40,315 nucleotides of DNA from Fibrobacter sp. (GTDB lineage: Bacteria > Fibrobacterota > Fibrobacteria > Fibrobacterales > Fibrobacteraceae). Below are positions 34,975-38,107 of this stretch, piece after piece (the first letter of the stretch is position 1; every line of letters begins with the position of its first letter). The notes below the pieces were generated by a model. It was given only the letters and a program-made list of their open reading frames with translations. It ran no database searches and was not told where the DNA came from. Location: contig JAFVGH010000015.1 in assembly GCA_017475045.1 (NCBI GenBank), positions 1 through 40,315 of the forward strand, written 5' to 3'. Made by a program: the position numbers and the translations under genes.

Positions 34975-35017
34975 GATGATCCTTTGGTTAAGTTGGTAAT
35001 TCGTTTTTGGATAGCCA

Positions 35018-35046
35018 AATATATTTAACTAGCCGTAATTCGTCAA
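35018..35046 (-). promoter_or_regulatory. Sigma-70-type promoter of rpsU
   Basis: TTGACG (35041-35046) and TATATT (35018-35023) are separated by exactly 17 nt on the minus strand. Transcription would start near 35011, about 37 nt before the rpsU GTG. It is the best promoter in the window together with the one at 26762. Confidence 0.75.
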
Positions 35047-35084
35047 GGGAAAGGGTATTTTTGGCCATTTTTCATATTTATAAC

Positions 35085-35113
35085 TTGCGGATTGTCAAAG
35101 ACTTATGTATATT
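35085..35113 (+). promoter_or_regulatory. Probable promoter of the SPOR lipoprotein gene
   Basis: On the plus strand TTGCGG (35085-35090), a 17-nt spacer and TATATT (35108-35113). Start of transcription near 35120 gives a ~55-nt leader before the ATG at 35175. It is divergent from the rpsU promoter 40 nt away. Confidence 0.5.
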
Positions 35114-35174
35114 ATGGCAGAGCACAGCCAAAAGGTTACTTTTGGACTTTTTAACAAGAAAAACGGAGATTTCA

Positions 35175-36248
35175 ATGAAATCACTCTCGATTTCCACCCT
35201 GATTACCGCAGCTTTCGCCTGCTTTATGCTGACGGCCTGCGGAGGCGGTGAAGATGACGTTGTCCCCCAGATGACCATCAAGAAGCCTGCCAAGACCACC
35301 GAAGCCAAGTCTACGGCAGCAGACGAACCTGAACTGGTGCCGATCCAGTCTCTTTCTGCAAAGAAGGCCAAAGCCGCCAAAGCCGAAAAAGTGCAGCTTC
35401 CGCCCGGGAGCGTCAAGCCTGAAGAAGACGGCCAGTACGTGATTCAGGTCAGCATCCAGTCTTCTAGGAAGGCTGCCGAGGCTATCGTCAAAAAACTTGC
35501 AGATCAGGACATCGAAGCCTACATTGCAGAAGTTGAAAATCCGGGTGAACTGGAAGGTACTTTCTACCGTGTCCGTATCGGCTATTTCTCCACAATTCAA
35601 AGAGCCCAAGCCTATGGCCAAGACGTTTTGGCACAGCTGAACTTCGGCTGGTGGGTCGACAACAGCAACAACGACGAAGTCGGTAAACCTGGTTCTGACG
35701 ACGAGTCCGCAGCACCTGCACCCGCAGCCCAGCCTGCTCCTCAGCCCGCTGCCGCTCCGGCGACCGCTCCTGCCGCTAAGCCTGCTCCTCAGCCCGCTGC
35801 CGCTCCGGCGACCGCTCCTCAGCCCGCTGCTGCTCCGGCACCGGCTCCTGCCGCTAAGCCCGCTCCTCAGCCTGCTGCCGCTCCGGCTCCGGCCGCCAAG
35901 CCCGCTCCTCAGCCTGCTGCCGCTCCGGCACCGGCTCCTGCCGCTAAGCCCGCTCCTCAGCCCGCTGCCGCTCCGGCTCCGGCCGCCAAGCCCGCTCCTC
36001 AGCCTGCTGCCGCTCCGGCACCGGCTCCTGCCGCTAAGCCCGCTCCTCAGCCTGCTGCTGCTCCGGCGACCGCTCCTGCCGCTAAGCCCGCTCCTCAGCC
36101 TGCTGCCGCTTCGGCACCGGCTCCTGCCGCTAAGCCCGCTCCTCAGCCTGCTGCTGCACCGGCACCGGCTCCTGCCGCTAAGCCTGCTCCTCAGCCTGCT
36201 GCTGCTCCAGCGGCAAAACCAGCTGCTGCTGATGACGACTGGGAATAA
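35175..36248 (+). CDS. SPOR-domain lipoprotein with long Ala/Pro/Lys repeat tail
   Basis: The 357-residue product has a lipoprotein signal (MKSLSISTLITAAFACFMLTACGGG, lipobox LTAC), a charged spacer, then a SPOR domain at about 85-160 (YVIQVSIQSSRKAAEAIVKKLADQDIEAYIAEV, FYRVRIGYFSTIQRAQAYGQDV). SPOR domains bind denuded peptidoglycan at division sites. The rest (from about residue 180) is a repeat tail with ten PAPQPAAA units, closed by an acidic DDDWE end. SPOR usually lies at the C-terminus, so this order is unusual. The ATG 35175 has GGAG 7 nt upstream; an in-frame region before it lacks a signal peptide. A terminator follows at 36274. Confidence 0.9.
   Translation: MKSLSISTLITAAFACFMLTACGGGEDDVVPQMTIKKPAKTTEAKSTAADEPELVPIQSLSAKKAKAAKAEKVQLPPGSVKPEEDGQYVIQVSIQSSRKAAEAIVKKLADQDIEAYIAEVENPGELEGTFYRVRIGYFSTIQRAQAYGQDVLAQLNFGWWVDNSNNDEVGKPGSDDESAAPAPAAQPAPQPAAAPATAPAAKPAPQPAAAPATAPQPAAAPAPAPAAKPAPQPAAAPAPAAKPAPQPAAAPAPAPAAKPAPQPAAAPAPAAKPAPQPAAAPAPAPAAKPAPQPAAAPATAPAAKPAPQPAAASAPAPAAKPAPQPAAAPAPAPAAKPAPQPAAAPAAKPAAADDDWE
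35719..36228 (+). repeat. Tandem repeats encoding Ala/Pro/Lys-rich tail
   Basis: Imperfect 42- and 48-nt units encode PAPAAKPAPQPAAA or PAPAPAAKPAPQPAAA. PAPQPAAA occurs ten times. Nucleotide copies are close to identical and GC-rich, so copy number is likely variable between strains and hard to assemble. Confidence 0.9.
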
Positions 36249-36333: not shown

Positions 36334-37644
36334 ATGCCTACTAAAAAGCCAAAAGTTTTTGTTGTCCACTTAGGATGTGCCAAGAACCAGGTCGATGCGG
36401 AGAACCTGGTCGGCGAGATGTTGCACGCCGGTTTTGCCACCTGCGACACGGCCGCCAACGCCGACTACATTCTGGTGAACACTTGCGGATTCATTGAAGC
36501 CGCCAAGGAAGAATCCATCAACGCAATCCTCGCACAAATTAACGGCAAGAAACCCAGGCAGAAGCTGATCGTTTCGGGCTGCCTTTCGGGCCGTTATGAC
36601 GACGAACTGGTGAAGGAATTGCCCGAAGTCGATTACTGGGTAGGCACCTACAAGCCGGGCGAACTTTTGAAAAAAATGGGAATCGTGGCTCCGCAAACTT
36701 GCGATGCCGAAAACCTACCGCGCATGAACCTGGGAGGATTCAAGCACCACGCCTACCTGAAGATTGCGGAAGGCTGCAACCGCCGTTGCGCCTACTGCGC
36801 CATTCCGCTGATTCGCGGCAAGCAGGTTTCACGCAGCATCGAAGACATTGTAGAAGAAGCCAAGGAACTCGAAAGACAGGGTGTAAAGGAAATTACGCTC
36901 ATCGCCCAGGACACGACCTACTTCGGCCGCGAAAAGGGCAAGAAGGGAGGCACGCTTGCACAGCTTTTAAAAGCGATTCTTGACAACACGAACATCCCGT
37001 GGATCCGTACGCTTTACTGGTACCCGATGTTTGTGGACGATGAACTTTTGGACCTGATGGCAAACGAGCCTCGCCTGGTGAAATACGTGGACATGCCCAT
37101 ACAGCATGCCAGCGACAATGTGCTCAAGAACATGAAGCGCAACTATCGCAAGAAAGAACTTGTCGACATTTTGCACAATATTCGCGAGCGCATCTCGGGC
37201 GTTACGCTGCGCACTACGGTACTTGTGGGTTTCCCCGGTGAAACCCACGAAGACTTTGAAGAGCTGATGGAACTCTTGGAAGACATCCAGTTCGATCACT
37301 TGGGCGGATTCGTATTCAGCCCTGAAGAAGGCACTCCCGTAATGGAAATGGACTTGCCCTCCGTCGACGAAAGCGAAGCCCGCGCAAGGCTCGATGCCGT
37401 AAACGATTTGCAAGAAGAATTGGATGCCGAACATGCCGAGGCATTGATCGGTAAGACCGTTCGCGTCATCATCGACCAGGTTGCCGAAGAAAGCGAATAC
37501 CACTTCTACGGACGCACCGAAGGCAACTCCATGGAAAACGACGATATCGTGAAAGTCTTGGAAGGTGACGCCGACGTGGGCGAATTCCGTGACGCCATTG
37601 TTGTGGATGCGGAACCGCATGAATTAATAGTTAAGCTAATATGA
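36334..37644 (+). CDS. rimO: Ribosomal protein S12 methylthiotransferase RimO
   Basis: RimO adds a methylthio group to an Asp of ribosomal protein S12. The 436-residue radical-SAM enzyme has the N-terminal UPF0004 cluster cysteines C15, C51 and C83 (VHLGCAKNQVD, LVNTCGF, VSGCLSG), the radical-SAM CNRRCAYC (C148, C152, C155) and a C-terminal TRAM domain (about 370-436). The VDAEN-LVGEML and KIAEGCNRRCAYCAIPLIRG phrases fit RimO better than MiaB. The ATG lacks a clear Shine-Dalgarno. A TATAAT at 36313-36318 would give a leader of about 9 nt, so the message may be nearly leaderless. The stop TGA (37642-37644) overlaps the repeat element described next. Confidence 0.95.
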   Translation: MPTKKPKVFVVHLGCAKNQVDAENLVGEMLHAGFATCDTAANADYILVNTCGFIEAAKEESINAILAQINGKKPRQKLIVSGCLSGRYDDELVKELPEVDYWVGTYKPGELLKKMGIVAPQTCDAENLPRMNLGGFKHHAYLKIAEGCNRRCAYCAIPLIRGKQVSRSIEDIVEEAKELERQGVKEITLIAQDTTYFGREKGKKGGTLAQLLKAILDNTNIPWIRTLYWYPMFVDDELLDLMANEPRLVKYVDMPIQHASDNVLKNMKRNYRKKELVDILHNIRERISGVTLRTTVLVGFPGETHEDFEELMELLEDIQFDHLGGFVFSPEEGTPVMEMDLPSVDESEARARLDAVNDLQEELDAEHAEALIGKTVRVIIDQVAEESEYHFYGRTEGNSMENDDIVKVLEGDADVGEFRDAIVVDAEPHELIVKLI

Positions 37645-37704
37645 TGCGATTAAATTTAATCTTTGATTAAATTTCCACCTCTCGCCTTACTCGGTGGTCG
37701 AACG
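37642..37704. mobile_element. Short hairpin element, copy 1, flanked by tRNA T-arm half-sites
   Basis: A 47-nt insert (37651-37697) lies between TGATGCGAT (37642-37650) and TCGAACG (37698-37704). These flanks are the two halves of the T-arm of the neighbouring tRNA-Arg. The insert has a perfect 10-bp hairpin, AAATTTAATC/GATTAAATTT around TTT, then CCACC...GGTGG. Its first TGA is the rimO stop. It is the same element as 37910-37994, minus a 38-nt internal segment. No open frame or transposase is present. Mobility is inferred from the two copies. Confidence 0.6.
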
Positions 37705-37761: not shown

Positions 37762-37836
37762 TACCTGTGATGCGATTCGAACGCATGACCTCTTCCTTCG
37801 GAGGGAAGCACTCTATCCAAACTGAGCTACACAGGC
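37762..37836 (-). tRNA. tRNA-Arg (anticodon CCG)
   Basis: The minus-strand cloverleaf is complete: acceptor GCCTGTG/CACAGGT (first pair G-U), D stem GCTC/GAGT, anticodon stem CTTCC/GGAAG with loop CTCCGAA (anticodon CCG, reading CGG), T stem ATGCG/CGCAT with loop TTCGAAT, discriminator A. CCA is not encoded. A conserved TTTTACTAT block about 16 nt upstream is shared with the second copy and may be part of the promoter. Confidence 0.93.
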
Positions 37837-37894: not shown

Positions 37895-38054
37895 TACCTG
37901 TGATGCGATCAAATTTAATCTTCGATTAAATTTCCACCTCTCGGCTCGGAAATGGACAAACTAGTTTGTCCACTTCTCTCGCCTTACTCGGTGGTCGAAC
38001 GCATGACCTCTTCCTTCGGAGGGAAGCACTCTATCCAAACTGAGCTACACAGGC
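37895..38054 (-). pseudogene. tRNA-Arg (CCG) interrupted in the T loop by 85 nt
   Basis: The two exons, 37995-38054 and 37895-37909, together are identical to the intact tRNA-Arg at 37762-37836. Between T-loop TTCGA and ATCGCAT an 85-nt insertion is present with no loss or duplication of tRNA bases. The acceptor, D, anticodon and T stems would all be intact after excision. Upstream, TATATT (38066-38071) and TTTTACTAT resemble the intact copy's promoter region. No known bacterial splicing signal is recognised, so I call a pseudogene, but a spliced or processed tRNA cannot be excluded. It lies upstream of the intact copy in the same direction. Confidence 0.85.
37910..37994. mobile_element. Hairpin-rich 85-nt element inside a tRNA gene, copy 2
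   Basis: Same left part as copy 1 (AAATTTAATC/GATTAAATTT hairpin, then CCACCTCTCG) and same right part (CCTTACTCGGTGG). An additional 38-nt segment (37944-37981) is placed between two CTCTCG repeats and contains a 20-nt perfect palindrome, TGGACAAACTAGTTTGTCCA (37953-37972). No coding capacity. Ends are not simple inverted repeats and no target duplication is seen. Confidence 0.65.
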
Positions 38055-38073
38055 AAGCGAGAGCAAATATAGT

Positions 38074-38107
38074 AAAAAGAAAGCCCACATTATCGTGGGC
38101 GTCTTTC
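38074..38107 (-). terminator. Terminator of the 38108-39016 gene
   Basis: GCCCAC (38083-38088) and GTGGGC (38095-38100) pair around ATTATC. On the minus strand TTTCTTTTT follows. It begins within the few bases after the stop codon and may also insulate the tRNA genes. Confidence 0.8.

What the first reader, a model, noticed from the sequence alone, without database searches (positions are those of the whole stretch)
37895..38054. tRNA-Arg(CCG) gene split in the T loop by a clean 85-nt structured insertion
Both exons together are identical to the intact tRNA-Arg 59 nt away, and the insertion (37910-37994) sits between T-loop TTCGA and AT without gain or loss of tRNA bases. Known bacterial tRNA interruptions are mostly group I introns of a few hundred nt in the anticodon loop; 85 nt in the T loop does not fit that. 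Phage and island integrases also use T-loop sites, but they normally restore the tRNA end. The perfect exons imply either a very recent insertion or selection to keep the tRNA functional.
Basis: partly seen in the sequence, partly recalled or inferred. Interest (0 to 1): 0.88.

Follow-up and report, generated by a model that had tools for sequence, protein, structure and literature searches.

The report
Palindromic repeat in a spare tRNA
In a Fibrobacter genome, one of two neighbouring copies of an arginine tRNA gene is cut in its T loop by an 85-base, two-hairpin repeat of a family found in every genome of the genus examined; it likely arrived as mobile DNA and is probably tolerated because the other copy is intact, and nothing seen here shows that the cut copy is spliced.

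Summary
In detail: on the minus strand tRNA-Arg(CCG) is interrupted between T-loop TTCGA and ATCGCAT by 85 nt (37994..37910), and the joined exons equal the intact neighbour 75/75. The insert belongs to an apparently undescribed two-hairpin repeat family: its core pattern is in 80 of 80 genomes of the genus and 0 of 56 phylum genomes outside the family. Stems co-vary strongly, without the G-T over A-C excess expected of selected RNA (small numbers). T-loop-type copies lie beside tRNA-Arg genes in at least 33 of 80 genus genomes. Four held genomes and contig L054 carry a full-length interrupted tRNA-Arg(CCG), each beside an intact copy; G072 lost 31 nt of the 5' exon; G031 shows an empty single-copy locus. 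Best reading: REP-like non-autonomous DNA in a spare tRNA. Against simple decay: the 5' exon is unchanged (0/60) in four lineages whose upstream flanks differ by 26-35%, which needs gene conversion or selection. Also open: in the window's own draft genome the only thrS found is a 3' part carrying an element.

The parts
37995..38054 (-). 5' exon of the interrupted tRNA-Arg(CCG), 60 nt, ends in T-loop TTCGA
   Evidence: identical to the first 60 nt of the intact copy (D1)
37910..37994 (-). 85-nt insert, member of the two-hairpin repeat family
37934..37994 (-). HP1 of the insert: basal stem CCACC/GGTGG around the core box at 37985..37942
   Evidence: fold; core pattern match 37942-37985
37910..37933 (-). 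HP2 of the insert: AAATTTAATCGAAGATTAAATTT hairpin with C-GAA-G loop, plus one base
   Evidence: fold; GNA loops frequent in the family
37895..37909 (-). 3' exon of the interrupted tRNA, 15 nt
   Evidence: D5
38064..38074 (-). TACTATATTTG upstream of the interrupted copy, -10-like (inferred); TACTAT is kept in all five aligned loci
   Evidence: alignment; promoter function not tested
37762..37836 (-). intact tRNA-Arg(CCG)
   Evidence: ARAGORN; Rfam 63.8 bits
37651..37697 (-). second, shortened copy of the insert (47 nt; HP1 interior missing)
   Evidence: longer counterpart in L026, L049, L017
37642..37729 (-). tRNA relic holding the second copy: ACCTG.. to GTTCGA, then the element, then ATCGCATCA
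   Evidence: read; alignment

Best explanation
The 85 nt are one copy of a family of short two-hairpin repeats dispersed through Fibrobacter, and this copy likely entered the T loop of a redundant tRNA-Arg(CCG) gene as mobile DNA and is probably tolerated because an intact copy stands beside it. Shown: family membership, two predicted hairpins with co-varying stems, a clean junction without duplicated target bases, shared presence in relatives, an intact neighbour, an empty locus in a relative (G031). Inferred: the element moves as DNA folded into hairpins, as REP and IS200/IS605 ends do, by an enzyme not identified here. Inferred: the exons stay identical through gene conversion with the neighbouring intact gene, or through weak selection. 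Inferred: the interrupted transcript, if made, is not spliced and gives no normal tRNA.
For: Family: the 85 nt match 55 of 111 family genomes at E<=0.1. The core pattern is in 80 of 80 genus genomes and, slightly stricter, in 88 of 167 genomes of the phylum sample, 0 of the 56 outside the family; the reversed control pattern hit once in each of 3 of 80 genus genomes. Structure: among 110 distinct cores, two stem pairs not fixed by the search pattern are Watson-Crick in 100 and 102 of 110 (highest of 1000 shuffles 56 for each); HP2 was found in 99 of 110, 58 of these with a C-GNA-G loop. Basal HP1 stem of at least 5 bp in 65 of 110, re-dealt mean 9.8. No RNA-strand bias: stem mismatches G-T:A-C are 18:14 in HP1 and 4:3 in HP2 (small numbers). 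Mobility: G029 has six nearly identical cores on six contigs. Redundancy: an intact tRNA-Arg(CCG) is beside each interrupted copy seen; G098 and G048 have an uninterrupted thrS besides their element-bearing thrS pieces. Decay: L017/G072 lost 31 of 60 nt of the 5' exon, and after CACAGG the split copy reads AT or TT, not TA, in L026, L017, L054, L049. Empty locus: G031/L330, a single identical tRNA next to rimO.
Against: The 5' exon is 0/60 different in all pairs among window, L026, L049 and L054, while the upstream flank differs at 19-28 of 73-87 positions in those pairs; a plain pseudogene should have drifted. T loops are over-represented: 39 of the 51 places listed show the element between GTTCGA and a tRNA-like tail, 30 of the 39 with at most 2 mismatches in 12 to the neighbour's own tail; a generic A|A target does not explain this. 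In the window's own draft genome (G000, 93.5% complete) the thrS search found no intact copy: only a piece of 288 codons at the start of contig C137, with an element and an in-frame stop inside it and otherwise open to its end, and nothing for its first 206 query residues; G044 and G084 likewise show only parts. An assembly broken by the duplicates would explain this, but it is not shown. No mobilising enzyme was found: Y1_Tnp is in 27 of 80 genus genomes and an element lies near 1 of 30 Y1 loci.
Confidence: 0.68

Rival explanations
1. The interrupted gene still makes a working tRNA: the insert lies between T-loop bases 58 and 59 (numbering recalled), leaves the T stem and loop fold intact, and is carried as a branched T arm or cut out by an RNase so that a nicked two-piece tRNA remains.
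For: MFE keeps acceptor stem, T stem and the two inserted hairpins as separate domains. 5' exon 0/60 different in four lineages with diverged flanks; TACTAT kept upstream in all five aligned loci.
Against: An identical intact copy is adjacent, so there is no need. G072/L017 lost the anticodon arm of the split copy; [quoted passage not shown] No RNA-strand bias in the stems. No transcript data.
Confidence: 0.13
2. The 85 nt are a very small intron of a new class that splices itself, or is spliced, out of tRNA and mRNA (or, in mRNA, is bypassed).
For: Clean junctions, sense orientation in the tRNA and in the thrS pieces L095-L097, L099, L100, L256, L247, several positions in one gene. In G000 the element-bearing thrS part is the only thrS found.
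Against: G098 and G048 have an uninterrupted thrS as well. 42 of 65 elements overlap no ORF of 120 aa. No excess of G-T pairs. Group I rules fail: the base before the insert is A, and no Intron_gpI match at E<=1.
Confidence: 0.05
3. The element is the end or attachment site of an integrative element that uses tRNA T loops; the copies are what is left at attL/attR after loss of the island.
For: T-loop position; displaced tRNA 3' tails downstream of intact tRNA-Arg(UCU) in many genomes; 3' duplicates of thrS.
Against: The same element is scattered through DNA away from tRNA genes, alone or in tandem. No integrase search was made. No island lies between the copies here: the two tRNA copies are 58 nt apart.
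Confidence: 0.12

Closest known systems
REP sequences and REPINs mobilised by TnpA-REP/RAYT (PMC8266576, passages; PMC3733652, passages)
   Same: Short imperfect palindromes, often between genes, with conserved mismatches or bulges in the stem; scattered and tandem copies.
   Different: No GTAG or CGTC tag as a rule (5 and 7 of 125 elements have one within 24 nt upstream of the box). Two unlike hairpins, about 85 nt. No flanking RAYT found. 'Fibrobacter' occurs 0 times in PMC3733652.
Group I introns in the tmRNA T loop (PMC11915505, passages)
   Same: Interruption of a T loop in a bacterial tRNA-like gene.
   Different: Those introns lie at loop positions 2, 3, 7 or 8 and average 414 bp in the 40 newly found genes; this insert follows loop base 5, is 85 nt, follows an A, and has no intron core match.
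Rickettsia palindromic elements (PMC6649704, passages)
   Same: Palindromic repeats that enter genes.
   Different: Those persist inside coding sequence without abolishing the enzyme (PMC6649704); here 42 of 65 elements overlap no ORF of 120 aa, and the thrS pieces carrying elements are broken by stops or frame changes.
IS200/IS605 ends and their non-autonomous derivatives (recalled; IS608 and ISDra2 contacts mentioned in PMC8266576)
   Same: Two hairpins with unpaired bases; insertion next to fixed bases without target duplication at the T loop.
   Different: No transposase tied to the element: Y1_Tnp in 27 of 80 genomes, 1 of 30 Y1 loci with an element nearby.

Membership tests
REP (GTAG/CGTC) | terminal GTAG or CGTC tag | tested here: not met
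   5 and 7 of 125 elements within 24 nt upstream of the box
REP (GTAG/CGTC) | dispersed imperfect palindrome, mainly outside genes | tested here: met
   80 of 80 genus genomes; 42 of 65 overlap no ORF of 120 aa
REP (GTAG/CGTC) | RAYT gene flanked by the repeats | tested here: not met
   1 of 30 Y1_Tnp loci has an element; Y1_Tnp in 27 of 80 genomes
IS200/IS605 derivative | hairpin at each end and insertion without target duplication | tested here: inconclusive
   clean T-loop junction, but direct repeats of 7 nt or more flank 22 of 110 elements, re-dealt mean 4.5; 2 of 33 T-loop ones
IS200/IS605 derivative | movement by a Y1 transposase | not testable with these tools
   needs a transposition assay
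Group I intron | U before the intron and a catalytic core | tested here: not met
   A precedes the insert; no Intron_gpI match at E<=1
Rickettsia palindromic element type | insert read as part of an open coding sequence | tested here: not met
   thrS pieces carrying elements show stops or frame changes at them; other genes not tested
Integrase attachment site | linked tyrosine or serine integrase | not tested
   no integrase search was run

The most novel reading that the evidence does not exclude
Fibrobacteraceae carry their own class of hairpin-borne mobile DNA that repeatedly homes to tRNA T loops (Arg-CCG, Arg-UCU, perhaps Pro-CGG), entering after loop base 5 so that the T-loop fold survives; in at least one clade the split tRNA is kept under selection and works as a tRNA with a branched or nicked T arm.
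Probability: 0.12. Interest if true: 0.8.

Novelty: new variant of a known kind. Interest (0 to 1): 0.52.

Why it matters
It turns a puzzling 'split tRNA' into one case of a widespread, apparently undescribed repeat family of a fibre-degrading gut genus. The family has an unusual two-hairpin anatomy and a marked liking for tRNA T loops. If the split copy is expressed, it is a natural test of how much a T arm can be extended; if not, it is a marker for finding the enzyme that moves the repeats. It also warns annotators against reading such loci as tRNA introns. Paper searches: held 0 papers; one search held 306 with three of four terms, of which I saw the 15 listed, none on such a family in Fibrobacter.

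Tried and rejected
Intron reading: judged unlikely on the adjacent intact copies, the distribution of copies, lack of RNA-strand bias and the group I rules.

tmRNA: GTTCGA...CTCCCGCC flanks looked like an interrupted ssrA; ARAGORN and Rfam show they lie just downstream of intact tRNA-Arg(UCU) in the loci tested (tmRNA hits lie elsewhere).

Interrupted essential thrS: L095-L097 first looked like thrS with frame-breaking inserts; G098 and G048 have an uninterrupted thrS elsewhere. For G044 (83% complete) and G000 only parts were found, so this stays open there. On re-checking for this report that fact moved my confidence from 0.70 to 0.68 and the intron rival from 0.04 to 0.05.

General hairpin-loop target: outer stems of at least 4 bp around 39 delimited non-T-loop elements number 7, re-dealt mean 6.6, so not supported. 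At the junctions A precedes the element in 34 of 39 and A or C follows in 36 of 39; part of this depends on how I delimited the stems, and 50 of 109 elements were dropped because both hairpins could not be delimited.

RAYT link: not supported.

Limits: the core searches fix part of the box, so conservation of those bases is by construction; only the free stem positions count as evidence. The ORF test used 120-aa ORFs, some of them shadow ORFs. One search listed 51 places; 12 were not used: seven look like coding matches by eye (G024, G031:C14, G053, G064, G065, G072:C26, G090:C4), three had no tRNA on the same strand nearby (G027, G048, G051:C13), two were not examined (G051:C37, G079:C20). 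judged 'full-length' by a 5' tRNA motif.

Full report
What is there. On the minus strand, 38054..37995 is the first 60 nt of tRNA-Arg(CCG), 37994..37910 is an 85-nt insert, and 37909..37895 is the last 15 nt; joined, the exons equal the intact tRNA at 37836..37762 in all 75 positions. The insert folds into two hairpins inside the T loop while acceptor and T stems stay paired. ARAGORN reports only the intact gene. Downstream of the intact gene, at the end of the rimO-like ORF (36334-37644; the name RimO is recalled), lies a tRNA relic with a 47-nt version of the same insert (37697..37651).

The insert is a repeat-family member. In the window's own genome the two copies at this locus are the only close ones, but the structured core recurs: eight matches of the core pattern there. 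With the 85 nt as query, 55 of 111 family genomes match at E<=0.1, mostly over positions 9-54. The core pattern AAGGCGAG..CCGAGCCG is in 80 of 80 genus genomes; its reversed control hits once in each of 3 of 80. In the phylum sample a slightly stricter pattern is in 88 of 167 genomes: 80 of 80 of the genus, 8 of 31 other members of the family, 0 of 56 beyond it. Rfam gave no match other than tRNA to the insert at E<=1.

Anatomy. From 110 distinct cores: a GGC/GCC helix, a tandem G-A/A-G mismatch (fixed by my search pattern, so not independent evidence), a G-C or A-T pair, one bulged base (T 53, A 34, C 22, G 1), a G-C pair, two freely co-varying pairs (Watson-Crick in 100 and 102 of 110; highest of 1000 shuffles 56 for each), a G-T then C-A mismatch step (93 and 88 of 110), then an inner palindrome. 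Twelve cores have the second helix pair turned from G-C to C-G, all 12 on both sides. HP2 follows in 99 of 110, with C-GNA-G loops in 58. A basal HP1 stem of 5 bp or more occurs in 65 of 110 (re-dealt mean 9.8, highest 18). Mismatches in stems show no clear preference for G-T over A-C (18:14 in HP1, 4:3 in HP2), which does not fit selection on an RNA of that strand, though the numbers are small. That GNA loops are very stable in DNA is recalled; I saw only a search listing on it.

Where copies sit. Of 65 elements in loci L095-L149, 42 overlap no ORF of 120 aa and 23 overlap some ORF, several of them shadow ORFs. Tandem copies occur (L104, L135, L136). In G029 six nearly identical cores lie on six contigs, a sign of recent spread. 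At the junctions, A precedes the element in 34 of 39 delimited non-T-loop cases.

T loops are a favoured place. Of 51 places listed, 39 show the element between GTTCGA and a tail like the 3' end of the adjacent tRNA, 84-90 nt apart in 38 of 39; 30 of 39 tails have at most 2 mismatches in 12. Twenty-nine are beside tRNA-Arg(UCU), eight beside tRNA-Arg(CCG), two beside tRNA-Pro(CGG), the last two with weaker tails (3 and 4 mismatches). By genome, at least 33 of 80 genus genomes have such an element beside tRNA-Arg. Most are relics near an intact tRNA. A full-length interrupted tRNA-Arg(CCG) is in G000, G023, G067 and G032 and in contig L054.

History of this locus. L330 (G031) shows rimO followed by one uninterrupted tRNA-Arg(CCG), 75/75 identical, and no element: the empty state. 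L026, L049 and L054 have the interrupted copy followed by the intact one; L017 (same coordinates as the G072 contig) the same with 31 nt of the 5' exon deleted; L010 a more decayed form. The 5' exon is unchanged in window, L026, L049 and L054 (0/60 in all pairs), HP1 differs at 3-5 of 58 among these, and the upstream flank at 19-28 of 73-87, that is 26-35%. The intact copy is also unchanged (0/75). In the window HP2 of the interrupted copy resembles HP2 of the relic, not HP2 of the interrupted copy in relatives, and the relic's HP1 resembles the interrupted copy's HP1; this points to exchange between the copies (inferred). So the insertion is not very recent, and the exons were kept by gene conversion, by selection, or by both; these data do not separate them.

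Is it spliced or needed? Nothing shows it. An intact copy is adjacent in each case seen. After CACAGG the split copy reads AT or TT instead of TA in four relatives. thrS pieces that carry elements looked at first like a strong case for splicing; in G098 and G048 they are duplicates, since an uninterrupted thrS lies elsewhere. In the window's own draft genome, however, only one thrS part was found: residues 207-494 of the query at the very start of contig C137, with an element near residue 362 that brings an in-frame stop, the rest being open, and no match for query residues 1-206. A broken assembly at a duplicated 3' end is the likely reason, but it is not shown.

Comparison. It works like REP elements and the hairpin ends of IS200/IS605 transposons, whose enzymes read bulges, mismatches and loops in folded single-stranded DNA (PMC8266576, passages). 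It is not a REP by the tested marks: GTAG or CGTC within 24 nt upstream of the box in 5 and 7 of 125 elements; Y1_Tnp in 27 of 80 genomes and an element near 1 of 30 Y1 loci. It is not a group I intron: those in tmRNA T loops sit at other loop positions and average 414 bp in the 40 newly found genes (PMC11915505, passages). Paper searches for such a family in Fibrobacter: held no paper; of 306 I saw 15 listed, none describing it.

Verdict. A real and unusual insertion, explained as a lineage-specific palindromic repeat in a redundant tRNA copy. What remains open is the T-loop preference, the unchanged exons and the thrS part in the window's own genome.

Noticed in passing
L291, L301, L169, L281 (downstream of tRNA-Arg(UCU)): After many tRNA-Arg(UCU) genes an inverted copy of part of the T arm and tail, often closed by a GAA loop, precedes GTTCGA and the element: in 8 of 28 relics a stem of at least 6 bp pairs the tail with upstream DNA, and in 15 of 28 a hairpin of at least 4 bp ends at GTTCGA, though the 4-bp ones arise in 10-18 of 100 shuffles (L295 dropped, tail not found). 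Looks like fold-back copying of the tRNA end; unexplained.
   Followed up: partly
G000:C137:1-945 (L247): thrS of the window's own genome: the only part found starts at the contig edge and carries an element with an in-frame stop at the same place as one in G098:C10.
   Followed up: partly
L098, L099, L100 and G048:C27, G098:C10: The 3' end of thrS is duplicated, sometimes several times, with elements between or inside the copies; thrS may be an integration target in this family.
   Followed up: partly
L285, L289, L299, L301, L302: Chimeric elements whose HP1 arms do not match each other, as if neighbouring copies had recombined inside the core (read by eye).
   Followed up: no
L120, L126, L129, L133, L141: In several copies the flank CAAATTTAGTAA (reverse of the TACTAT-like motif) or a near form is repeated after HP2 and its complement lies between the hairpins; direct repeats of 7 nt or more in 22 of 110 against a re-dealt mean of 4.5.
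   Followed up: partly
G028:C23 and G046:C17: Three and two tmRNA-family matches over the cut-off lie within about 1.5 kb of each other, possible tmRNA duplications.
   Followed up: no
window 35007-36248 +: ORF with a long, degenerate proline-alanine-lysine repeat (PAPAAKPAPQPAAAP units) after a SPOR-like stretch (domain name recalled).
   Followed up: no
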